From a virus, in the IMG/VR virus record IMGVR_UViG_3300035180_002231, positions 1 through 33,184 of that record: 33,184 nucleotides of DNA. The stretch is one strand, 5' to 3'. Made by a program: the position numbers and the translations under genes. Positions 1,034 to 28,980 of this stretch are shown here, in pieces (the first letter of the stretch is position 1; each line of letters starts with the position of its first letter). The notes below the pieces were generated by a model. That model was not told the origin of the DNA. It did not search any database and worked only from the letters and a program-made list of their open reading frames with translations.

Positions 1034-1041
1034 TATTTATG
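1034..1041 (-). promoter_or_regulatory. T4-late-like promoter box CATAAATA
   Basis: On the minus strand the eight bases read CATAAATA, one base from the T4 late consensus TATAAATA. The box ends 17 bases before the ATG of the fibre gene at 1-1016. The ten-base context GCATAAATAG recurs ahead of the first gene of the fibre cluster. Late control is an inference. Confidence 0.45.
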
Positions 1042-3097
1042 CTCCGACTAGCGTAACGATCAGTCCTCGAGCACCTACACCAGCTGAGTCAACGTCAACG
1101 CTAAGCACACCGTCAGCAGGAATGCTTGTAATAGCTAGCACAGCAGGTACAATAGCTGATAAGCTTGAGTGTTCGTTTACATCAATAGAAAGTCTAGTAT
1201 TAAAGATTGACACGCCGTTAAGCTTAATGTCGATGATGATCTGCCCTGCAAAGCTCTGACTAAGCACAAAAGCTTTTACGGATGCTAGTGTAAAGGCGCG
1301 CGGCGCAACTGTATAGAGCACTGTCGAGTCAGCTACCAATGTCTTTGACAAGTCACGTTCTGCAAGCTGTAAAATTAGCTCAGACGCACTAATCGGCCCT
1401 GTAGCACCCATAGGACCTGTAATCGACGGACCAGTAGGACCCGTAGCAATCGGGCCTGTAGGACCAGTCGGACCTACCGCTGTGCTTGCAGCGCCTGTCG
1501 GACCTGTAACTGAAGGACCTGTAGGACCTGTGGCACCGATCAACCCTGTCGGGCCTGCGATACCTGTCGGACCTGTAACTGAAGGGCCAGTTGGGCCGAC
1601 TACACCGGCCGCGCCCGTCGGACCTGTAACTGAAGGTCCTGTTGCGCCAAGCGCTCCAGTAGGACCAGTAGCGCCTTGAGTGCCTACCGTGCCTGTAGGA
1701 CCGGTTACTGAAGGTCCTGTTGCGCCGGTGGCACCAACGGCGCCGGCGTTGCCTGTGGGACCAATTATCGATAAGCCTGTTGGTCCCGTTACGCCTTGTA
1801 AGCCGATTGCTCCTGTTGCGCCCTTAGGACCTGTTGCGCCTGTAGGACCAACTGTAGTACTCGCTGCACCCGTAGGACCTGTCACTGACGCGCCCGTTGG
1901 GCCCGTTGGGCCACCTGAAGCTCCAGTAGGCCCGAAGGCGCCAGTTGGGCCTGTAGGACCTATATCACCAGGATAGCCCTGTGGGCCAGCCATGCCAGTA
2001 GGACCGCGGTCTCCAACAGGACCTGTGGCACCTGAGCCGGCTGGTCCTGTTACTGATGCGCCTGTTGGGCCCGTAGGTCCGGTTGAACCCGTACCTGCAG
2101 GTCCTGTTGGCCCAACGCCGCTTGGACCAGTTACTCCAGCCGGTCCAGTATGACCTGTCGGCCCTTGTGAGCCCGGATCTCCTACTGGGCCTGTAGCGCC
2201 CTTTGGTCCTGTCGGACCTATGCCGGTAGGACCTGTTGGCCCACCAGCTGGCCCAGTTGCGCCGAAACCTGTCGGACCTGTCGGACCTGCTAATCCGATT
2301 GAACCGGTAGCACCAGTAGCACCTGTAACGCCAGTCGGGCCTCTTGGACCGGTCATGCCTGCAACACCGACCGAGCCAATTAGACCTTGTGGGCCAGTCG
2401 GGCCTTTTAGGCCTTGCGAGCCTGTTGGGCCGGCATGACCCGTAGGACCTACAAAGCCGGTTGGGCCAGTGGCACCAGTCGGACCCGAAGGCCCAAAATA
2501 ACCTGTTGGCCCCAAAGGACCAGTTGGGCCTGCCGCGCCATTAACGCCTGTCGGTCCAGTAGCTCCCTGCGAGCCAGTAGCCCCTCTAGGCCCTAAGCCA
2601 CCTGCAAGCCCCTGTGGACCTGTTGGACCCGCCGCTCCGTCAACGCCTGTTGCGCCTCTCGGCCCAACTGAGCCAATCGAACCTACAGCTCCTGTTGGAC
2701 CTGTTACTCCACGAGCGCCTACAAATCCTTGCGGGCCAGTTGGCCCCATTGAAAGGCTATCAACGTCAAGCAGCACTGTAGTAGCGTTGATAATTGTACC
2801 AGCACGTTGATATTGGCTAAGCGTTGGTGCTTGCTGTGTTAACGTGCCTGAATCATCAATGTAGAGATCACGGCCGCTTGCTATGTCCCATGACCATGAC
2901 GAGTTGCTTACTTCGCCTAACGTAGTCACAGTCAACGTGGCCGCGCCTGGCCCAACGCCAGTTGTAAGCATGCCAATTGAGCTGACGGTCGAGGTAGCTC
3001 GGCGTAAACCGTTAACGATAGTCTCATCCATCGCTACCATTGTGTATGGCGCGATGTTGTCGAGAACGTTAAACAACTGGGTAAATGTAGTTGTCAT
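1037..3097 (-). CDS. Collagen-like (Gly-Pro-Thr repeat) phage fibre protein, 686 aa
   Basis: Residues 1-117 form a non-repeat head that contains the same module as the flanking fibre genes ([34 protein letters not shown]). About 450 residues of Gly-X-Y triplets follow, dominated by GPTGPT and GATGPT and periodically broken by GPSVTGPTG units. The last ~115 residues are a beta-rich, repeat-free tail that may trimerise the collagen rod. The start lies 2 bases beyond the stop of the upstream gene and has only a weak ribosome site, so translation is probably coupled. Collagen-like repeats are common in phage fibres. The Thr-rich Y position is the kind of site that is O-glycosylated in Bacillus BclA, and two glycosyltransferase genes lie just beyond the cluster. 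Confidence 0.85.
1400..2760 (-). repeat. Degenerate 9/18-bp collagen repeat tract (686-aa fibre)
   Basis: The DNA encoding the Gly-X-Y rod is a long degenerate array of 9-bp Gly-Pro-Thr units (on the + strand cctgtwgga and similar). It produces many spurious proline/valine-rich open frames on the + strand. Such arrays expand and contract easily by slippage. Confidence 0.8.
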
Positions 3098-3099
3098 AG

Positions 3100-4749
3100 T
3101 TAGTTAATAGCAAGCCAGGCAACAGTGCTAGTATCACCTGTCTGTGTTGCACCGGCTGCATCCTTGGATTCAATTAAGAATGAAGTACCAACATTCTTTG
3201 TAATTGAATAGCTTGTACCAATGGTGCCGCTATCTGAATTGCGGGTGATGAAGATCTTCGAGCTGCTCGTAACGGCAAAGGTAACAGTTGCAGTGCCGCT
3301 GCTTAAAGCAGCCGTACCTGCTGTCATTGGCAGTGCTGATGGACCTGTCGGTCCGTCAATACCAGGTGCACCAGTTGGGCCAGTTACTGTCAAACCTTGA
3401 GCGCCTGTTGGTCCAACGGAACCTTGAGCGCCTGTTGGTCCAACAGAACCTTGAGCGCCTGTTGGTCCCGTAACTGTGCTAGCAGCACCTGCGGCGCCCG
3501 TTGGACCAGTAGGACCTCCTGCTACACCTACTGCACCTGTTGGACCTGCTACTCCTGTTGGGCCAGTCACACCGGCGCCAGTAGGTCCGGTTACACCAAA
3601 GCCACGAGGACCTTGTATGCCAGTAGGACCTGTAAGAGATAAGCCAGTAGGACCTGTAAGAGCGAAGCCGCGAGGACCTTGCATGCCAGTAGGACCTGTT
3701 GGGCCGACTGAACCTGCACCAGTAGGACCTGTTGGGCCTCCTGCAGGACCTGTCGGTCCGACTGAACCTGCACCAGTAGGACCGGTCGGACCTGCAGCTA
3801 GCGATAGGTTATCAAGCGTAAAGCCTAGGAGCAGCGTATGCTGACCGCGAATTACACCCAACGCTTGGGCGATGATTGTGTTCGGACGAGTAGCAGATAC
3901 GGTACCGCCTGGTTCAAGCCAAAGCAGCTTACCGATATCGTTTAGGTCAAAGTCAAGCGTGCTGTCATTGATGATGCCGCTTGTCATTGTACGAGCTACC
4001 GCACCGGTAGGAGTACCTAACCGAATATAACCTGACGCCCAACGGTCAAGGCTTGGATCTGCAAGCATTACAGCACCAGGCGCTGTAACAGACACAAATG
4101 ATGCTGGAGGAATCGGCTCACCAGCTAGCAAGTACTCTTGCTCTGCATCAAGCGATACAACGCTATCATACTCACCCGTGTTGATCTTAAAGCCCGAAGC
4201 TGTGTTAATGAACGTACCGTCTACTGGATCCTTCAAGCCCACGCCTGTTAAGCTATACACGATATAGCCGGCTGTTTGGATGGAGGTTAGACCGACCTGT
4301 GACGCAAATGCGTTAGGGGCAACAACCCCGCTTGCTGAAACCTGACCTGCAAATACACGGATCTTCTCAATCCAAGTACCGCTTACGCCGTAGTACATCA
4401 CGCGTTCAGCGGTATTGAAGAAGTGCAGGCCGTTTGTAACGGTGCCTGGCGTTGTCGAGCCGTAGGTAGGAGCAACTGTCGTGTAACCACGAGCAGCAAC
4501 GCCTGTAGCAACGTCAATGTCCCAGTAGAGATAAGTCTGGGTACTCAGAGGCAATGGGCCCCATGCATGTGAGACGTTGAACGGCTCTTCAATTAGGTAG
4601 TTCTTCGTCTTATGAGCCGCTACAGCTAGCAGCTTCATGTCAGTGACATACACATTGACATATGCGCCGTCTGCTTGCAAGAATAGCCTCGTGTTAGACG
4701 GTAATGTTGTTTGTCCTTTTAGGACGCCTTGGGTATACGGAACTTGCAT
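3100..4749 (-). CDS. Modular collagen-like phage fibre protein, 549 aa
   Basis: Residues 1-~215 match the start of the partial gene at 1-1016. Residues ~240-315 ([19 protein letters not shown], then [11 protein letters not shown]) match the module that begins the 686-aa neighbour. Residues ~320-470 are Gly-Pro-Thr collagen repeats, including tandem GPTGAQGSV units. Residues ~470-549 are a Ser/Thr-rich beta domain of the type that ends many phage fibres. It is the first gene of the minus-strand cluster and is divergent from the methyltransferase-glycosyltransferase gene at 4852. A CATAAATA box lies ~65 bases upstream. A role as tail fibre or capsid decoration is inferred. Confidence 0.85.
3330..3800 (-). 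repeat. Collagen repeat tract (549-aa fibre), with a near-perfect 27-bp tandem repeat
   Basis: This stretch encodes the Gly-X-Y rod of the 549-aa protein. Around 3395-3470 three tandem copies of a 27-bp unit encoding GPTGAQGSV are almost identical, which points to recent duplication. Confidence 0.75.
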
Positions 4750-10751: not shown

Positions 10752-11975
10752 ATGGCGATTTCTAAGACCGATGTCACGGTATACATCGGACGTTTCAATC
10801 CCCTTCATCTTGGCCACTGCCACATCCTGAAGCAAGCCTTGCTTCAATCCAGGCTCGTAATTGTGCTCGTTGGTTCGGCTGGCCTCTCAAGGTCGCTGAA
10901 GAATCCCTTCACCTTTGCCGAACGCTCGGGGGTGTTGTATGACTGGTATTCCGAGCTCACTGAGCAAGACCCGCGAGTTGGCGCGCTGATAGTCAAGGCT
11001 GCACGTGACTTCCCGTACAACAACACTCTCTGGTGCCGAAATATCCAGAGCCTTGTCAAGGAAGCCATTCATGACTTCCAGCTCCAAGATCCAAAAACCG
11101 ATTTCAAGCAGTATGACCTAGGCCCTAACCCGCATATCACGTTGACTGGCTCTGACCGAGACGAAACCACTTGGTACTTGCAATCATTCCCGCAGTGGAA
11201 GCAAGCATTCATCGAGCCGTATCGTCACAATGGCACCGCTGATGTCTCAGCCACGCAAATTCGCCACTGGCTCTTTGACGATGAGCTGAGTCCCGAACAC
11301 AACTCTATCCTGCACATGATGCCGGAGGAAACGTTTGACTTCATCGAGTACTTTGAAGATACGCAGGAGTATGTGCAGCTCAAGGCTCTCTACGAGTTCG
11401 TCAAGGACTATAAGGCTCGTGCCAAGGCATACCCGTACCCACCGATCTATCACACAGTCGACGCCGTCGTGGTCCAGTCAGGACATATCCTAGTCGTCGA
11501 GCGAGGCAAGCAACCAGGCAAAGGCCTGTGGGCTCTGCCTGGTGGCTTCGTCAATCAAGATGAACGACTGCGTGACGCAGCCATTCGCGAGCTGATTGAA
11601 GAGACCAACATCCAGCTCGCCTTCATCCCTGCGCCCAAGAATCCGTCACCTGCTGAGGCAAAGGCCCACAAGAAGCGCGTGATGGACATGCTCAAGAAGA
11701 TCTTGGGTGGCTCGATCCGCGGTCAAGGAGTCTTTGACAAGCCAGATCGGTCTGACCGAGGCCGCACAATCACCAACGCCTACTTCTTCAGGCTTGATGA
11801 CATGAAGCCGCTGCCTGAAGTGACAGGTGTCGAGCAAGGTAACATCGATCCCGAGTGCGACGTGAATCGGTGCTTCTGGCTGCCGATTGACGAAGCGCTC
11901 GAGCGTTCGGACATGTGGTTCGAGGACCACCATGCAATCATCGAGACTCTAATCGGTGCAGAGGACCTGAAATGA
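10752..11975 (+). CDS. natV: Bifunctional NMN adenylyltransferase / Nudix hydrolase (NatV-like)
   Basis: The N-terminal half is an archaeal-type NMN adenylyltransferase: GRFNPLHLGH near residue 13 (nucleotide-binding HxGH) and SATQIR near 165 (the SxTxxR motif). The C-terminal half from ~225 is a Nudix hydrolase with the box GGFVNQDERLRDAAIREL followed by IEETNI; the usual Gly of EExG is Asn. This domain order matches NatV of phage KVP40. It should make NAD+ from NMN and ATP, while the Nudix domain cleaves ADP-ribose-type compounds. It is first in an operon ending with nadV, has a GGAG site before the ATG, and overlaps the next gene by ATGA. Confidence 0.9.
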   Translation: MAISKTDVTVYIGRFNPLHLGHCHILKQALLQSRLVIVLVGSAGLSRSLKNPFTFAERSGVLYDWYSELTEQDPRVGALIVKAARDFPYNNTLWCRNIQSLVKEAIHDFQLQDPKTDFKQYDLGPNPHITLTGSDRDETTWYLQSFPQWKQAFIEPYRHNGTADVSATQIRHWLFDDELSPEHNSILHMMPEETFDFIEYFEDTQEYVQLKALYEFVKDYKARAKAYPYPPIYHTVDAVVVQSGHILVVERGKQPGKGLWALPGGFVNQDERLRDAAIRELIEETNIQLAFIPAPKNPSPAEAKAHKKRVMDMLKKILGGSIRGQGVFDKPDRSDRGRTITNAYFFRLDDMKPLPEVTGVEQGNIDPECDVNRCFWLPIDEALERSDMWFEDHHAIIETLIGAEDLK

Positions 11976-12305: not shown

Positions 12306-13856
12306 ATGAACCAAGCAATCAATAACAAGCTGTTTCGTCACAGCAAGATCGACATGGGTCAGATCCTGGCGCCGAAACCGACCGACAAGGCCTACATGCA
12401 AACTGATCAGCTGACCATCAGCTTGATCTGTCGCGCCGACAGCTACAAGTTCTCCCACGCCTTTGCCTTCCCGGATAACGTAGTCGGCATGTCAGCCTAC
12501 GGCACGGCTCGTGTTAAGTCGCATGTTACGCTCATCCCGTTCGGCATGCAGTTGCTTGTCAAGCGGTTCCTGACACAACGTGTCACCATGGCCCACATCG
12601 ATGCGGCCGAAGAGTTCGCCGAGGCTCACTTCGGCCGCAAGCTCTTTGCACGTGCTGACTGGGAGAAGGTGGTCACAGACTATGACGGTGCGCTGCCGCT
12701 CATTATCCGTGCAGTACCTGAAGGCACACCTATCAAGGGTGGCATGCCGATGTGGACTGTCACATGCCTTGACGAGGATCTCTTCTGGATATCCGTCTAC
12801 TTCGAGACCATTATTCAACGCGGGGTCTGGTACCCTACAACGGTGGCTTCGCTCGACTACGATATCAAGCAAGAGATCAAGCGCTTCTACGAGATCAGCG
12901 GCGCTGATATGGGTTTGCTGCCCTTTGCGCTGCATGACTTCGGCGGCCGAGGCGTGACCTGCAGCGAGCAAGCTGAGATCGGCGGCGCGGCTCACTTAGT
13001 CAGCTTCATGGGCTCTGACACCATCGAAGGCGTGTTGACGGCCAACTTCTACTACAAGGAGGCCATGGCCGGCTTCTCGGTCTTCGCTACCGAGCACAGC
13101 GTCGAGTGCTCGTTCGGCTTGGACGCCAAGGGTGAGCACAACTACCTCGAGCACGTGCTGAACCAAGCGGTGCCAGGCTCGATCATCTCCATCGTCATTG
13201 ACGGCAAGGACGTGCTACGGTGCGCCGCAACGCTCTGCGCACCCGAAGCAGAAGGTGGCTTCCGTGAGAAGATCATTGCCAGCGGCGCCAAGATCGTGTT
13301 TCGCCCTGACAGCGGTGACATGCTCGAGATCGTGCCCAAGATCTTACGTATGCAGGAAGCAGCCTTCGGCTCGGTCATAAACTCCAAGGGCTACCGCAAG
13401 ATCAACTACGTAGGCATCATCCAAGGCGACGGTGTTGACCACATGATGATCAAGACCCTCTTGGGCAATGTGCTGGCCATGGGCTTCAGCGCCGACAATG
13501 TGGTCTTCGGCTCTGGTGGTGCCCTGCTACAGAAGATGGACCGTGACACTTTCAAGTTCGCACAGAAGGCTGCCTCTATCCTGGTGCGTACCTTGCACCT
13601 GGGTGCGCACGGCGGCGTTGAGGTTGACGAATGGATAGGCATCGCCAAGGACCCGGTTACCGATCCTGGCAAGAAATCGCTCGAAGGCGTCTTGACCCTG
13701 GCGCGCTCGAAGAGCACCGGCGAGCTGGTGACCGCCCGACTGGATCAAGGTCCGTTGTCTGATGACCTCGAGGATGTGCATGTGCTGGTCTACCACACCG
13801 GCACAACGTACAACGAGACCACTCTGGCTGAAGTCCGCGAAAGAACCAAAACGTGA
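12306..13856 (+). CDS. nadV: Nicotinamide phosphoribosyltransferase (NadV/NAMPT), 516 aa
   Basis: It matches NAMPT across its length: DSYKFSHAFAFP near the N-terminus, the substrate motif HDFGGRGVTCSEQAEIGGAA (the Asp equivalent to human Asp219, which favours nicotinamide, is present), the catalytic His in ATEHSV, FRPDSGD, IQGDGVD and FGSGGALLQK. It makes NMN from nicotinamide and PRPP. The NMN would feed the NatV-like enzyme encoded just upstream, giving a complete two-step route to NAD+. An AAGGAG ribosome site precedes the ATG. The gene ends in a GTGA overlap with the next small ORF. NAMPT plus NMNAT in phages is described as a pathway restoring NAD+ depleted by host immunity. Confidence 0.95.
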   Translation: MNQAINNKLFRHSKIDMGQILAPKPTDKAYMQTDQLTISLICRADSYKFSHAFAFPDNVVGMSAYGTARVKSHVTLIPFGMQLLVKRFLTQRVTMAHIDAAEEFAEAHFGRKLFARADWEKVVTDYDGALPLIIRAVPEGTPIKGGMPMWTVTCLDEDLFWISVYFETIIQRGVWYPTTVASLDYDIKQEIKRFYEISGADMGLLPFALHDFGGRGVTCSEQAEIGGAAHLVSFMGSDTIEGVLTANFYYKEAMAGFSVFATEHSVECSFGLDAKGEHNYLEHVLNQAVPGSIISIVIDGKDVLRCAATLCAPEAEGGFREKIIASGAKIVFRPDSGDMLEIVPKILRMQEAAFGSVINSKGYRKINYVGIIQGDGVDHMMIKTLLGNVLAMGFSADNVVFGSGGALLQKMDRDTFKFAQKAASILVRTLHLGAHGGVEVDEWIGIAKDPVTDPGKKSLEGVLTLARSKSTGELVTARLDQGPLSDDLEDVHVLVYHTGTTYNETTLAEVRERTKT

Positions 13857-22615: not shown

Positions 22616-22844
22616 TCATTGAGCTTTTTGCTCGTTTATGACTTTGCTATAATAAACTTTTAAGTTGATTATAGAGTATGATGGCGCTGCTCACAGAGAC
22701 GATGTAAGTCTTGACGCTGATAAAGAGCGAGTCGCTAATCTTAAAGGTTATACGGTGCTTAAAAAACCTACGAAGAAACGATACGAAAGCTTAAGCATGT
22801 ATTTAAATTCACAAAAGTTTGGGAAACAGTATGAGCGTGCTTAA
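22616..22844 (+). pseudogene. Vsr-like / PD-(D/E)XK homing nuclease fragment with a one-base frameshift
   Basis: One frame reads VYDFAIINF and stops at 22661-22663. The next frame continues KLIIEYDGAAHRDD, then DADKERVANLKGYTVLKK. Removing one T from the TTTT at 22658-22661 joins them into DFAIINFKLIIEYDGAAHR, the D...E-x-DG-x-H core of Vsr-like homing nucleases. The fragment runs 14 bases into the topoisomerase gene and has no usable start. The rest of the 22535-22830 gap holds a TATAAT (22648) and a GAGC/GCTC hairpin, with no other gene. Confidence 0.6.
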
Positions 22845-24642
22845 GTATAAAAAATTGACAGATACAGAGCATGTACTACTTAGACCAGGTATGTACATAG
22901 GCTCAATCAAGCCGCATACAGCAAAAGTCTACATTATTGAAAATGATGTAGCCAAGTCAGAAGTTGTAACTTGGAATCCTGGCTTTGTTAAGCTGTTCGA
23001 TGAAGTTATTTCAAATTCCGTTGACCATTCAAATCGTCAAGAAGGTAAACATCTCGATACGATTAAGGTTGACATTGATCGTCAAGCAGGAACAATTTCT
23101 GTTTTTGATAATGGGGGTATACCTGTTCAGATTCACCCTGAACATAAAGAATATGTCCCAACGATGATCTTTGGAAGCTTACGATCAGGTTCAAACTTCG
23201 ATGAATCTGAAGATCACGCGGTCACAGGACAGAACGGCCTTGGCGCGAGCCTCACAAATTGTTTCAGCACGAAGTTTGTGATCGAGACGTGTGACGGTAA
23301 GAGCACCTTCAAGCAGACATTCACCAACAACATGATGGAGAAGACGAAGCCATCCATCATGGAGATGGATGAGCCTGGCTACACTCGGATTACCTACACG
23401 CCTGACTACGCTCACTTGGGCACGACTCTCGATGAGAACTATTCGAAGCTGGTCAAGCGGTGCTATGACATCGCAGGCTGCAACCCACAGCTGAAGATCT
23501 ATCTCAACGGCAAGCGCATCCGCATCGACTCGTTCAAGGACTATGTTAAGCTGTACACGGCCGAGTTTGAGATTGACGAGACGCCTGACTGGCAGGTTGC
23601 CGTTACAGCGAGCGATGAGGGTTTCAAGCATGTGAGCTTTGTCAACTCAACTGAGACGGTGCAAGGTGGCAGTCACATCGACTATGTCACCGAGCAGATC
23701 GTTGACAAGCTTCGTGAGTTCTTCAAGTCAAAGCACAAGGTTGACATCAAGCCGGCTGAGATCAAGCAGCACATGCGCTTGTTCATCAATGCGCGGATCA
23801 TCAAGCCTAGGTATGACTCCCAGACCAAGGAGAACCTAATCACCGAGCCGAAGGAGTACAAAACCTCCTACAAGGTTTCGGAGAAGTTGATCACAAAGCT
23901 GCTGAAGTCGTCCATCATCGAGCGTGTGCTGATCTGGGTCGAAGCAAAGGCTCGCGCCAAGGAGCTCGAGGAACTCAGGGCGAAGAACAAGGACCTTGAC
24001 AAGGTCAACCCGAAGCGGATTCTCAAGCTCGAGGACGCAGGTCTCGCTGGGAAGAAGCCGGCTGAATGCTACCTCTTCATCGCAGAGGGCGATTGCATCG
24101 AAGATCAAACCTTAGTAAGAACAATTCACGACAGCGTTCTTAAGGACGTGCCTGCTGGCGAGCTGCATGTAGGTGATCTTGTACTAACTCACAAAAATAG
24201 GTATAAGCCTATTACAAACATTGCATATGCTGTTAAGCAGCTCTTAGAGATTAAGCTTGATAATAATACTATGATTAGATGTTCACCGGAACACAAGCTG
24301 CTTACGTATGATGGAATTGAGCTGACTTGGAAGCCTGCTAGCAGCTTAGCACTTGGTGATAATGTGGTTAGGTCTACATTGCTTGACGCATTTCACGTAG
24401 CTGTTATTAAGGTGGCTTCTCGCGATGATAAAATCTTTACGCGTTTAATTGAGCTTGATATTGGGTTTGATCCGATCATGTCTTCAGCGAGCCATACTTT
24501 TTATTGTCTAGATATGCATGATCTAGAATATAAAATGGTTAGCGCAGCTCGATTACATCCTGGCAGGCATCTTATAGTCTTCCGTTATAAATATGACTGT
24601 TCTTCAGGGAAGAGTCATGAAGTGGAAAATTGCAGAGACTAG
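22831..24642 (+). CDS. DNA topoisomerase II large subunit, N-terminal part fused to split-intein N-half
   Basis: Residues 1-421 are a type IIA topoisomerase ATPase, transducer and TOPRIM start: RPGMYIGS, the ATP-site Glu/Asn in DEVISNSVDH, DNGGIPV, and TGQNGLGAS. The extein stops exactly after YLFIAEGD, the first acidic motif of TOPRIM. Cys422 (TGC 24094) then begins an intein N-part: CIEDQTLV, a GELHVGDLVL block and the block-B CSPEHKLLT. About 90 further residues follow before the stop. I prefer ATG 22831 to a TTG at 22819. The first ~385 bases are AT-rich, then the composition shifts near 23215. The partner is the gene at 25656. The assembled protein (421+218 residues) matches fused T4 gp39 plus gp60. 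Confidence 0.9.
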   Translation: MSVLKYKKLTDTEHVLLRPGMYIGSIKPHTAKVYIIENDVAKSEVVTWNPGFVKLFDEVISNSVDHSNRQEGKHLDTIKVDIDRQAGTISVFDNGGIPVQIHPEHKEYVPTMIFGSLRSGSNFDESEDHAVTGQNGLGASLTNCFSTKFVIETCDGKSTFKQTFTNNMMEKTKPSIMEMDEPGYTRITYTPDYAHLGTTLDENYSKLVKRCYDIAGCNPQLKIYLNGKRIRIDSFKDYVKLYTAEFEIDETPDWQVAVTASDEGFKHVSFVNSTETVQGGSHIDYVTEQIVDKLREFFKSKHKVDIKPAEIKQHMRLFINARIIKPRYDSQTKENLITEPKEYKTSYKVSEKLITKLLKSSIIERVLIWVEAKARAKELEELRAKNKDLDKVNPKRILKLEDAGLAGKKPAECYLFIAEGDCIEDQTLVRTIHDSVLKDVPAGELHVGDLVLTHKNRYKPITNIAYAVKQLLEIKLDNNTMIRCSPEHKLLTYDGIELTWKPASSLALGDNVVRSTLLDAFHVAVIKVASRDDKIFTRLIELDIGFDPIMSSASHTFYCLDMHDLEYKMVSAARLHPGRHLIVFRYKYDCSSGKSHEVENCRD

Positions 24643-25787
24643 CTATGTCATCAATATCAACAAACCTTTAACTCGAGCTTCGCTTAGGCAATCGCTAAAA
24701 GTCAAATGTAGTAGAATGAAGCTTGACTGGATAGAGCAGCTACTTCAAAAATTTGACAATGTAAGAACTTGCGGTTTTTGTGATCGCATCGACGGTTCAT
24801 ACCAGTTCTTATACGAGCAAGTCGGTTTAAACGAACTAAAGATTTTAGGTATAGAGTATGAAACAGATTTGCATTATTGTCGACGTTCAGCATGTGAAGG
24901 TTCAAAGCTGAATCCAAATTCTATTGAATTTGTCGCTAAGAGCAGAAAAATTACTACAGATGCTGCCCTTACGCTAATTCATGCACGAAACAGAACGCCC
25001 TTTTATAGATGCAATCATAGCTCTGATACAGAGTATGCTAAGAGTCAAAACATCTACGACGGCTTAACGTTAGAACAGCGCGAAGGTGTTATTGCTAAGC
25101 AAAACTACGCAAGATCACTAGAAGGATATAAAGAGCGCCATGGACTTGACGGTGAGCGATTATGGCGAGAAGTTCAACGTCATAAAGCCATTACAGTTGA
25201 AAATCTGTCACGCTTGCATGACGACGCTCCTCAGCGAATAGCAACTTGGAAAAGTAAGACTAGTTGCTCTCTTGATAACTATGTTAGACGTTACGGTGAC
25301 ACAGAGCTAGCTAAAGAGCTGTATGTTCAGCACGTACGAAAAATAACTGCGCATTACGGAAAACGTTTTGAATATGAAGGGTATACCTTCTATTCTAAGG
25401 TAGAGGCACGGTTCTTTGACATGCTACGTCAACATGCAAGAGGAATAATTTTTGAACATGATGCTTATTATCCAGATAGTGCAAGACGAAGTGATTTTTA
25501 CTTCCCAGCTATTAACTTACATGTCGAGTTAGCATTTGCGTTCTACTTTGACGGATATGCTAAACGGTTAGATGAGAAGCGTAAGCTATTCAACCCTTTA
25601 ATCATCACAGCTGAATCGGATTTTCAAACAGCCATCGATGATATTGTTAGACAGCATGATCAACTTAAAATCAATTCAACTAGTTAAAGTAATCGATATC
25701 ATCGATGTGGGGCTATGTAACACTATCGATTTAACGGTTACAGATGACGAATCATTTACCCTTTCATCCGGCGTTATCAGCCATAAC
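24094..25787 (+). mobile_element. Split intein with inserted endonuclease gene in the TOPRIM motif
   Basis: The AT-rich block has sharp borders: GAG-GGC-GAT before Cys (TGC 24094) and CAT-AAC before Ser (TCG 25788). The order is intein N-half (24094-24639), endonuclease ORF (24617-25687), intein C-half (25656-25787), in three different frames. This is the arrangement described as fractured genes with split inteins and Vsr-like homing nucleases. Confidence 0.8.
24617..25687 (+). CDS. Free-standing homing endonuclease (PD-(D/E)XK/Vsr-like), 356 aa
   Basis: The ATG at 24617 has GGGAAG upstream; an earlier in-frame ATG at 24593 is possible. The N-terminal part has a zinc-ribbon-like CGFC with a later CRRSAC. 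The middle is helical and basic, perhaps DNA-reading. The C-terminus YSKVEARFFDML, SDFYFP and LHVELAF, then FDGYAKRLDEKRKLF, has the E-D-E-x layout of PD-(D/E)XK/Vsr-type nucleases. The gene overlaps the intein N-half by 26 bases and the C-half by 32 bases in other frames. It would cut intein-less topoisomerase genes and spread the insertion. The DNA target is unknown. Confidence 0.7.
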   Translation: MKWKIAETSYVININKPLTRASLRQSLKVKCSRMKLDWIEQLLQKFDNVRTCGFCDRIDGSYQFLYEQVGLNELKILGIEYETDLHYCRRSACEGSKLNPNSIEFVAKSRKITTDAALTLIHARNRTPFYRCNHSSDTEYAKSQNIYDGLTLEQREGVIAKQNYARSLEGYKERHGLDGERLWREVQRHKAITVENLSRLHDDAPQRIATWKSKTSCSLDNYVRRYGDTELAKELYVQHVRKITAHYGKRFEYEGYTFYSKVEARFFDMLRQHARGIIFEHDAYYPDSARRSDFYFPAINLHVELAFAFYFDGYAKRLDEKRKLFNPLIITAESDFQTAIDDIVRQHDQLKINSTS

Positions 25788-26444: not shown

Positions 26445-26446
26445 GC

Positions 26447-26743
26447 ATGACAAGCCTACAGATGACTTTCCTCAGGCACTTGGAGCTCGACAATCCAACG
26501 CACTGCCCGAAGCTTAATGACGCGCTCGCTGAACTTCGTGAGGTCACCAGGCGGAACTGGCAGCTGATCGAGACCGAAGTCGAGTGGCCTATCTGGTCGC
26601 TCAAGAAGCTATATCACTATAAGCTTTTCATTGAGATGCCAGATGCCTCCGCCTTGCCGTTCAAGACGATCAGGAGCGACTCAACGGCTGAAGTCATGTT
26701 GGCCTACGTCAATGGCTATTTAGACGCTGTAAAGGGCCTCTAA
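26447..26743 (+). CDS. Hypothetical protein between topoisomerase subunit genes, 98 aa
   Basis: The ATG lies 2 bases after the large-subunit stop. The product is helical, with conserved-looking WPIWSLKKLYHYKLFIEMP and a C-terminal helix. I do not recognise it. Its position between the topoisomerase subunits may reflect co-expression. Confidence 0.6.
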   Translation: MTSLQMTFLRHLELDNPTHCPKLNDALAELREVTRRNWQLIETEVEWPIWSLKKLYHYKLFIEMPDASALPFKTIRSDSTAEVMLAYVNGYLDAVKGL

Positions 26744-27065
26744 TGTTTACATTCAAACCTATTTCCGGTTGTGTTGGTAAGTTCCAGGCGTTTCGGGGGC
26801 AATCCTAATGCAAAGCTTTATCCAAGCGCTTGGTGTTTTGCTAGACCGACTGGCGTGGTGATCACAGAAGTTGGATAGATGATGCCAAGTCTGCTTATGC
26901 TCTTGACATAAAAGCGGATAGGTTGGCATGCGTTCAAGCTCAACTTGGTATACAATCTATCAAAGAGAAACTTTACCTCTTAGCTGCATGGTCCAACCGA
27001 TATTTTATTGTCATCGATCAAGAGAAACTCGATAGCTTGATCGATGAACACAGAGAAGAATACAA
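26743..27065 (+). pseudogene. Likely pseudogene in three frames upstream of the medium subunit
   Basis: Starting at a TAATG overlap, one frame reads MFTFKPISGCVGKFQAF and stops after a GGGGG run (26795-26799). A second frame continues GNPNAKLYPSAWCFARPTG to a TAG at 26876. A third continues WIDDAKSAYALDIKADRL up to the next ATG at 27066 and then into it. Protein-like sequence carried from frame to frame suggests one ~110-aa gene broken twice. No family is recognised. A TATACAAT at 26949 could be a -10 box. Confidence 0.4.
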
Positions 27066-27635
27066 ATGCGTACTACCACCGTCTCCGACTTTTTCGCTAC
27101 CTCCGTTCGTGACTACTCAGTCCACGCAAACGTTCGGGCCATTCCCGATCTCATTGACGGCTTCAAGCCCTCCCAACGAAAAGTCATCTTTGGCACGCTG
27201 AAGAAAGCAGGCACGATCCCTGAGACCGGCATCAAGGTCTCACAGCTTGCTGCGCAAATTTCTCTATGCGTTGCTGCCGATACACAAATCAATATTTTTG
27301 GTCGACTAATTCGGGTTGATACATTATATGAGCTGCTTGGGCCAAATGCCAGTTTTGAAATTGATGCTATTGATCCAAAATCCGGTCAGCTGATTATTGC
27401 TCAATGCAACGGCATTCTAGAAAAGGGCGAAGAAACTGATTTTATTGAAATCGAGCTTGCTAATGGTGAGCTGATAAAAGTAACCCCACGACATAAGCTT
27501 CTTACAGATAGTGGTTGGAAGAAAGCTTGTGAATTGACAACAGATGATGAGCTTATTGACCTCCCTGTGATAAACAAAAATACTACCATCACAGAGATGA
27601 TTGATGAGCTTTATTCAGGAGACACTGTCAAGTAA
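27066..27635 (+). CDS. DNA topoisomerase II medium subunit, N-terminal part fused to split-intein N-half
   Basis: Residues 1-67 match the start of T4 gp52/GyrA-type proteins: SVHANVRAIPDLIDGFKPSQ followed by RKVIFG. Cys68 (TGC 27267) opens an intein: CVAADTQINIFGRL (block A), then TPRHKLLTDSGW (block B, with the TxxH). The 122-residue N-half ends at TAA 27633. It pairs with the gene at 27682. It has no endonuclease domain. Splicing would give 67+393=460 residues, close to T4 gp52. Confidence 0.88.
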   Translation: MRTTTVSDFFATSVRDYSVHANVRAIPDLIDGFKPSQRKVIFGTLKKAGTIPETGIKVSQLAAQISLCVAADTQINIFGRLIRVDTLYELLGPNASFEIDAIDPKSGQLIIAQCNGILEKGEETDFIEIELANGELIKVTPRHKLLTDSGWKKACELTTDDELIDLPVINKNTTITEMIDELYSGDTVK

Positions 27636-27798
27636 GAATGTCATTGACAATTGGAAATTATGCAAGATACCATGGTGCAAAATGCAAATCAAGTCAATCC
27701 GTAAACTAAGCTATCAAACGCCAGTGAAGGTCTTCGACCTGTCAGTTGAAGGTGTTCATAATTTCACAATTGGTGTGTCTAAGATTGTAAGCCATAAT
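27267..27798 (+). mobile_element. Second split intein, in the topoisomerase medium subunit
   Basis: The AT-rich block lies between a TCT-CTA boundary (ISL) and the TGT for the +1 Cys at 27799. N-half 27267-27632, C-half 27682-27798, with no full endonuclease between. Only a 23-codon ORF lies there. Block order and end residues (Cys1; His-Asn with +1 Cys) are canonical. Confidence 0.75.
27638..27709 (+). pseudogene. 23-codon remnant at the site of the endonuclease gene
   Basis: An ATG 2 bases after the N-half stop opens a frame MSLTIGNYARYHGAKCKSSQ that ends overlapping the C-half start by 28 bases. Its place and overlap mirror the full endonuclease gene of the first intein (whose end overlaps its C-half by 32 bases). 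The YxxxHGxxC pattern is seen in some homing enzymes. I infer an internal deletion of an endonuclease gene that left its ends. Confidence 0.4.
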
Positions 27799-28980
27799 TG
27801 TGCCGCTTACCACCACGGCGAAGCAAGCCTTGAGTCCACGATTGTTGGCCTAGCCCAAGATCACCCAGGCGCCAACAACCTCAATTACCTCAAGCCACTA
27901 GGCCAGTTTGGTTCTAGGCTTGGAAACTCGCCAAGCGCGTCTCGCTACATCTTTACTGACATAGCTACCTGCTTTCGTAAGATTTTCAAACGGGACGATG
28001 ACCTGATTCTCAAGCATTTGGTTGAGGACGGCGAGGAGATCGAGCCTGAGCGCTACCTGCCGATCCTGCCTAACGTGCTGGTCAACGGCGCTGCGGGCAT
28101 GGGCACTGGCTTTGCGTGCCGAATCCTCTCGTATAACCCAGAGGACCTACGCAAGTACATCATCGACAAGCTGAAGACAGGCGCAACCAAGGTCAAGCTC
28201 ATTCCCTGGTTCCGAGGCTTTAAGGGCAAGGTCGAGCGGATGCCGTCGGGTCAGGTGCAAGTCACCGGCGTTGTCGTCAAGGAAACCTCAACCAAGCTCG
28301 TCGTGACAGAGCTGCCTATTGACATGTACCAAGACTCTTACAAGGAGATTCTGTTCGGGCTGCAGGACGCTGGCTTCATCAAGGACTTTGACAACGGCTC
28401 GACGGTGAATGGCTTTCGCTTTGAGCTCGACGTGCCGAGAGCCACCGGCTACGCCGAAGAGGAGGAGCTAATCGGCAAGCTGAAGCTGACCACGAAGATC
28501 ACCGAGAACTTCACGGTGTGGCTGCCGTCAGGCAAGCTCAAGTGCTTCAAGACACCCGAGGAGCTTTGCGACGCCTTCATCGAGTATCGTCTCGAGCGCT
28601 ACGAAGATCGGCGCCTTGCAAAGATTGTCGAGCTGAGCGAGAAGCTCGACGTGCTAAATGAGAAGGTACGCTTCATCGAGATGTACTTGCAAGACGGGAT
28701 GTCAGGCAAGATCTCGAAGATGACCAAAGCCAAGCTCGAAGAGATGCTGACGGCCGATGGGTACAAGCATGTAGAGCAGCTGCTTGAAATCCGAATCTAT
28801 AACCTGACCCAGGATAACATCGACAAGCTGTTGGCTGAGATCATAGTTTTGAAGCAGCTTGTTGAGTACTTTGAGCAGCAGACCAAGCAAACGCTGTATC
28901 TCAATGACTTGACTGAGTTGGATATGAAGGATGACCTGAAGCCACCTGTGCAGATTGTCAAAGTTAAGAAGGGAAAGTAA
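27682..28980 (+). CDS. Split-intein C-half fused to topoisomerase medium-subunit C-terminal part
   Basis: Residues 1-39 are an intein C-half (block F around VKVFDLSVEGVHNF, ending KIVSHN) with Cys40 as the +1 residue. The extein resumes AAYHHGEASLESTI and carries the DNA-cleaving Tyr in SPSASRYIFT, as in T4 gp52 and eukaryotic topoisomerase II, followed by LPNVLVNGAAGMGTGFA. A long coiled-coil-like region lies near the end. I prefer ATG 27682, which parallels the first intein's C-half start (MINLKSI / MQIKSIR). An upstream ATG at 27604 would overlap the N-half. Confidence 0.88.
   Translation: MQIKSIRKLSYQTPVKVFDLSVEGVHNFTIGVSKIVSHNCAAYHHGEASLESTIVGLAQDHPGANNLNYLKPLGQFGSRLGNSPSASRYIFTDIATCFRKIFKRDDDLILKHLVEDGEEIEPERYLPILPNVLVNGAAGMGTGFACRILSYNPEDLRKYIIDKLKTGATKVKLIPWFRGFKGKVERMPSGQVQVTGVVVKETSTKLVVTELPIDMYQDSYKEILFGLQDAGFIKDFDNGSTVNGFRFELDVPRATGYAEEEELIGKLKLTTKITENFTVWLPSGKLKCFKTPEELCDAFIEYRLERYEDRRLAKIVELSEKLDVLNEKVRFIEMYLQDGMSGKISKMTKAKLEEMLTADGYKHVEQLLEIRIYNLTQDNIDKLLAEIIVLKQLVEYFEQQTKQTLYLNDLTELDMKDDLKPPVQIVKVKKGK

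What the first reader, a model, noticed from the sequence alone, without database searches (positions are those of the whole stretch)
27066..28980. Second split intein in the other topoisomerase subunit
The medium subunit is also broken: 67 extein residues, Cys-led N-half with TPRH block B, stop, then a C-half ending His-Asn and a +1 Cys before AAYHHGE. Both subunits of one holoenzyme would therefore be assembled from four half-proteins by two separate splicing reactions. The differing block sequences should reduce cross-splicing, but cross-reaction is an open question.
Basis: partly seen in the sequence, partly recalled or inferred. Interest (0 to 1): 0.8.

Follow-up and report, generated by a model that had tools for sequence, protein, structure and literature searches.

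The report
Split intein in phage topoisomerase gene
In this phage fragment the gene for one half of a DNA-untangling enzyme is broken by the two halves of a self-splicing protein segment, just as its partner gene is; the pieces are probably stitched together after translation, a known trick that also hits both genes in one other giant phage, although here a single missing or extra base could equally explain the break.

Summary
The T4-type topoisomerase II medium subunit is encoded as ORF 27066-27635 (67 extein residues, then a Cys-led N-intein with TPRH) and a +1-frame ORF ending a C-intein (VSHN|C) followed by 393 extein residues. Both halves exceed the NCBIfam intein cut-offs. A sister phage (L027) carries both subunits uninterrupted, and the window's joined exteins align to it without a gap at either site. 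The large subunit is a textbook 'fractured' split intein with a freestanding endonuclease-like ORF. Most likely the medium pair also trans-splices, giving a 460-aa subunit. This is not unprecedented: uncultured phage LR756500 has both subunits fractured, large at the same site, medium 8 codons downstream. One thing is odd: the medium halves have no endonuclease between them, unlike about 14 comparison pairs, and their ORFs overlap by 35 nt, so one indel in 27598-27635 would give an ordinary 177-aa cis-splicing mini-intein. Evidence points both ways: ATG 27682 sits at the canonical split C-half start, but the C frame is open 27 codons upstream (1.7% by chance in this AT-rich DNA). Reads would settle it. 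New member of a known kind.

The parts
27066..27266 (+). N-extein of topoisomerase II medium subunit (67 codons)
   Evidence: PHROG 551 E=1.2e-14 and PF00521 above cut-off; aligns to the intact 451-aa subunit of L027
27267..27632 (+). N-intein (122 aa): Cys1 at 27267, TPRH block B at 27483-27494, 24-aa tail after block N4; stop 27633-27635
   Evidence: TIGR01445 33.5 bits, over cut-off 24.5; PF14890 28 bits, below cut-off
27598..27635 (+). Interval from the last C-frame stop (TGA 27598-27600) to the N-half stop (TAA 27633-27635); the ORFs overlap at 27601-27635. A single indel here would join them into one 177-codon intein; longest homopolymer 3
27604..27681 (+). Open upstream extension of the C-half (alternative start ATG 27604); no homologue found
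27682..27798 (+). C-intein (39 aa) from the canonical start ATG 27682, ending His-Asn 27793-27798
   Evidence: TIGR01443 27 bits, over cut-off 15.6; 38-48% identical to split C-halves in viral clamp-loader genes and LR756500
27799..28977 (+). C-extein of medium subunit (393 codons), Cys+1 at 27799; stop 28978-28980
   Evidence: PF00521 242 bits; PHROG 551 E=8.6e-107
22831..24093 (+). N-extein of topoisomerase II large subunit (421 codons, to AEGD)
   Evidence: PHROG 543 E=6e-123
24094..24639 (+). N-intein of the large subunit (Cys1, SPEH block B)
   Evidence: PF14890 30.3 bits, below cut-off; homologous to LR756500 large N-half, z=21
24593..25687 (+). Freestanding ORF between the large-subunit halves, putative homing endonuclease
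   Evidence: tblastn to the equivalent ORF of LR756500, E=3e-17 over residues 57-235; weak PHROG nuclease hits
25638..25787 (+). C-intein of the large subunit (VISHN end); overlaps the endonuclease-like ORF
   Evidence: TIGR01443 19.4 bits, over cut-off 15.6; 17/38 identical to LR756500
25788..26441 (+). C-extein of the large subunit (218 codons, Ser+1)
   Evidence: PF16898, PHROG 543 E=2.5e-45; seamless junction against L027

Best explanation
The medium subunit gene was invaded, at a codon boundary just upstream of the conserved YHHGE motif, by a class-1 (Cys1, His-Asn, Cys+1) intein that is now encoded as two polypeptides. The N-half protein (189 aa) and the C-half protein (translated from ATG 27682 or ATG 27604) associate through their intein pieces, rebuild a HINT fold and splice in trans to give a 460-aa medium subunit. 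The large subunit does the same with a different intein pair to give 639 aa. The medium pair probably descends from an endonuclease-bearing fractured gene, or from a continuous mini-intein, by deletion or frameshift in the linker. Shown: gene anatomy, intein motifs, seamless exteins, empty sites in sister phages. Inferred: trans-splicing, orthogonality and evolutionary route.
For: Intein blocks on both halves above curated cut-offs. Sister phages L027 and L028 have an uninterrupted medium subunit, and L027 an uninterrupted large one. Joined exteins match L027 at 285/447 (medium) and 444/630 (large) residues with no gap at either junction. The insert is AT-rich (GC 0.37-0.40) in a gene of GC 0.53. 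ATG 27682 lies where known split C-halves start, and that segment is 38-48% identical to viral clamp-loader split C-halves and to LR756500. The same element type occupies the large subunit next door and both subunits of LR756500. No frameshift appears elsewhere in profile-matched genes of the contig, and the critical interval has no homopolymer over 3.
Against: No endonuclease ORF lies between the medium halves, whereas every comparator pair that I inspected (about 14) has one. The ORFs overlap, and one indel makes a 177-aa mini-intein of ordinary size. The C frame is stop-free for 27 codons upstream of ATG 27682, which off-frame element DNA shows only 1.7% of the time (16 codons, enough for overlap: 13%). 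Ribosome-binding sites are weak at both candidate starts. The AlphaFold model of the joined intein is of low confidence (pLDDT 49.6).
Confidence: 0.6

Rival explanations
1. The medium intein is a continuous cis-splicing mini-intein (177 aa, no endonuclease), and the break is a one-base sequencing or assembly error in a metagenomic contig.
For: The insert is 532 nt = 177 codons + 1; both frames are open across 27601-27635; the N-half carries a 24-aa tail and the C frame an upstream extension, as a frameshifted continuous ORF would; C-frame openness is rare by chance; the continuous terminase intein of Oceanotoga phage UFV02 has a linker of similar length.
Against: No other indel in profile-matched or L027-matched coding of the contig; no homopolymer over 3 in the interval; a Met sits exactly at the canonical split C-half start.
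Confidence: 0.22
2. The sequence is real but the gene is a recent frameshift casualty: the halves do not ligate efficiently, or the subunit fragments work by non-covalent association, as inferred for the split T4 topoisomerase large subunit.
For: T4-type topoisomerase and other phage enzymes tolerate split subunits (PMC2988022). No activity data here.
Against: All splicing residues (Cys1, TxxH, HN, Cys+1) and both exteins are intact.
Confidence: 0.12
3. The two ORFs are joined by programmed ribosomal frameshifting into one precursor that splices in cis.
For: Overlapping ORFs in the +1 relation.
Against: The site GTC AAG TAA G is not a +1 slippery site known to me; no homologous case found.
Confidence: 0.03

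Closest known systems
LR756500.1, uncultured 462-kb phage (also IMG/VR 3300025030_000039), topoisomerase genes
   Same: Both subunits of the T4-type topoisomerase II are fractured by split inteins; large-subunit site identical; its medium halves are the closest relatives found of this medium intein (C-half 18/39, N-half 28/75)
   Different: Medium insertion is 8 codons downstream (YHHGD|SALNQ) with Ser+1 and has an intervening endonuclease-like ORF; N- and C-halves do not overlap
Fractured genes with split inteins and freestanding endonucleases (Dassa et al. 2009, known to me and cited in PMC6892783; paper not held)
   Same: DNA-metabolism gene broken between intein N and C domains, halves as separate adjacent ORFs; the window's large subunit fits fully
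   Different: The medium pair has no endonuclease gene and its ORFs overlap
Phage MIJ3 DNA polymerase B split intein with HNH ORF (PMC6892783)
   Same: Jumbo phage replication gene with split intein blocks
   Different: Different host gene; endonuclease present
T4 gene 60 topoisomerase large subunit split by mobA (PMC2988022)
   Same: Phage topoisomerase subunit in pieces because of a mobile element
   Different: No intein; the fragments stay separate polypeptides
DnaE, gp41-1 and NrdJ-1 split inteins (background knowledge)
   Same: Trans-splicing with Cys1 and a C-half of about 35-40 aa; NrdJ-1 is a weak sequence hit
   Different: Other host genes; activity proven there, not here

Membership tests
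Class 1 intein (HINT domain) | Cys at intein position 1 in block A | tested here: met
   CVAADTQI at 27267; TIGR01445 over cut-off
Class 1 intein (HINT domain) | Block B TxxH | tested here: met
   TPRH 27483-27494
Class 1 intein (HINT domain) | C-terminal His-Asn followed by Cys, Ser or Thr | tested here: met
   VSHN|C 27793-27801; TIGR01443 over cut-off
Class 1 intein (HINT domain) | Precise insertion: joined exteins equal an intact homologue | tested here: met
   No gap at the junction against L027, pf16, X1 and XacN1
Class 1 intein (HINT domain) | HINT fold of the rejoined halves | tested here: inconclusive
   AlphaFold pLDDT 49.6; PF14890 below gathering score on each half
Class 1 intein (HINT domain) | Protein splicing activity | not testable with these tools
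   needs an assay
Fractured-gene split intein with homing endonuclease | N and C halves in separate ORFs at the canonical split point | tested here: inconclusive
   Separate ORFs in the contig and ATG 27682 at the canonical C-half start, but a one-base indel would abolish the split
Fractured-gene split intein with homing endonuclease | Endonuclease ORF between the halves | tested here: not met
   Medium pair: none. Large pair: putative, ORF 24593-25687
T4-type topoisomerase II medium subunit (exteins) | Family match across both exteins | tested here: met
   PHROG 551, PF00521; 64% identity to L027

The most novel reading that the evidence does not exclude
A natural split intein without an endonuclease, encoded in two overlapping frames one base out of register: a snapshot of the conversion of a cis-splicing into a trans-splicing intein, in a phage where both subunits of one holoenzyme must each be built by a separate, non-cross-reacting trans-splicing reaction.
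Probability: 0.4. Interest if true: 0.5.

Novelty: new member of a known kind. Interest (0 to 1): 0.35.

Why it matters
Split inteins in both subunits of one holoenzyme set a natural test of orthogonality between two trans-splicing reactions in one cell. If the medium pair is real, its overlapping frames would show how a continuous mini-intein can become a split one. It would also add a compact candidate pair (122 + 39 aa) for protein ligation. Otherwise it is a further case of a well-known pattern: mobile inteins in phage DNA-metabolism genes.

Tried and rejected
Same-site inteins elsewhere: a DNA pattern for HN-xxx-YHHG[ED] in viral contigs gave 6 hits, none in a topoisomerase. Single-protein scans with P0001 and P0002 found nothing. 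Intein alignment A2 found only L021, which is the LR756500 phage again, and L022, a continuous intein. A genome-contig scan with A2 found nothing. The F-x-AEGD-C pattern for the large site gave 14 chance hits. An endonuclease-alignment scan found nothing, but its patterns were poorly placed. Intron: no Rfam match in the window. Endonuclease remnant: the C-frame tail SKNVIDNWKLC resembles the end of the LR756500 medium endonuclease (TESIEENYKLC), p=0.026 for the last 40 aa, but nine endonucleases were tried, so it is not significant. A Klebsiella phage KP13-7 hit over the same tail is an out-of-frame reading there. Linker homology to continuous inteins: none convincing. Structure: low-confidence model, so no fold search was run. 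Relatives cannot be drawn for a virus record with the genome search.

Full report
Observation. The window is a 33,184-bp IMG/VR virus record. The medium-subunit ORF 27066-27635 carries 67 residues of a T4-type topoisomerase II medium subunit, then Cys1 and an N-intein with TPRH, then a stop. A second ORF in the +1 frame ends a C-intein with VSHN, then Cys+1 and 393 residues of the same subunit.

Insertion, not decay. Related phages L027 and L028 (63% identical over the C-extein) have an intact 451-aa medium subunit, and L027 an intact 637-aa large subunit. Aligning the window's joined exteins codon by codon to L027 gives no gap at either site: medium QISL|CAAYHHGE against AVSM|VAAYHHGE, and large AEGD|SASK against AEGD|SAAK. 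The insert's GC is 0.37-0.40 inside exteins of 0.53.

Two lineages. The window's large and medium halves resemble each other only around block B and the C-terminal block. The large halves match the large halves of LR756500.1 (z=21 and 14.5) and the medium halves match its medium halves (z=14.4 and 14.9). LR756500.1 has both topoisomerase subunits fractured, each with an intervening ORF. Its large site is the same as the window's; its medium site is 8 codons downstream. The only phage-collection relative of the window's large-subunit intervening ORF is the ORF at the same place in LR756500 (E=3e-17, residues 57-235); the C-terminal parts of the two diverge. The double fracture therefore already exists in a public genome. 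I found no held paper that describes it, which is not proof of novelty: the library is partial and the key 2009 paper on fractured genes is not held.

Is the medium intein truly split? For: the C-half Met at 27682 lies 18 residues before the block F aromatic residue, within the range of about 15-21 seen in the other split C-halves (viral clamp-loader genes L012, L013, L016, L018, L019; LR756500; Klebsiella phage KP13-7 nrdA; Vibrio phage vB_VmeM-32 uvsX; my count), and it is 38-48% identical to the clamp-loader and LR756500 ones. The contig shows no other frameshift where it can be checked against profiles or L027, and the critical 38 nt hold no homopolymer longer than 3. Against: every comparator pair inspected has an endonuclease-like ORF between the halves, and this pair has none. 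One indel would produce a 177-aa mini-intein. The C frame is open for 27 codons before ATG 27682, seen at only 1.7% of off-frame positions in the AT-rich element DNA. I judge a real split more likely than an error, mainly because indels are absent from the rest of the checkable contig; this weighting is my judgement, not a computation.

Mechanism. Inferred: the halves associate, the Cys1 thioester forms and is transferred to Cys+1, the terminal Asn cyclises, and the 460-aa subunit is released. The two pairs probably do not cross-react: in a published test 15 of 16 split inteins were mutually orthogonal (PMC7090010), and these two pairs are divergent. No activity was tested here, and the structure model was too poor to use.

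Verdict. Observation confirmed; interpretation partly supported; a new member of a known kind with one unusual feature (no endonuclease, overlapping frames) that reads could confirm or remove.

Noticed in passing
24593-25687 and L005:4105-5226 (-): The intervening ORFs of the large subunit in the window and in LR756500 share a middle region (about residues 57-235 of the window protein) but their C-terminal parts diverge, suggesting a swapped nuclease module on a common DNA-recognition part.
   Followed up: partly
L005 and LR756500.1 around 209850 and 249596-259006: LR756500 carries about five fractured genes with split inteins and an intervening ORF, including both topoisomerase subunits, a clamp-loader gene and a polymerase-like gene.
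   Followed up: partly
26445-27065: About 620 bp with a 98-aa ORF (weak PHROG 27870) separate the two topoisomerase genes; L027 has only 42 bp there.
   Followed up: no
10752-11975 and 12306-13856: Adjacent cytidyltransferase/NUDIX and nicotinamide phosphoribosyltransferase genes, which look like an NAD salvage pair.
   Followed up: no
1037-4749 (- strand): Two long proteins with extended collagen-like GPTGPTG repeats, possibly tail-fibre proteins.
   Followed up: no
L032 (Klebsiella phage KP13-7) 549-6079: nrdA is broken at least twice, with several intervening ORFs and two fragments that begin with a C-intein.
   Followed up: no
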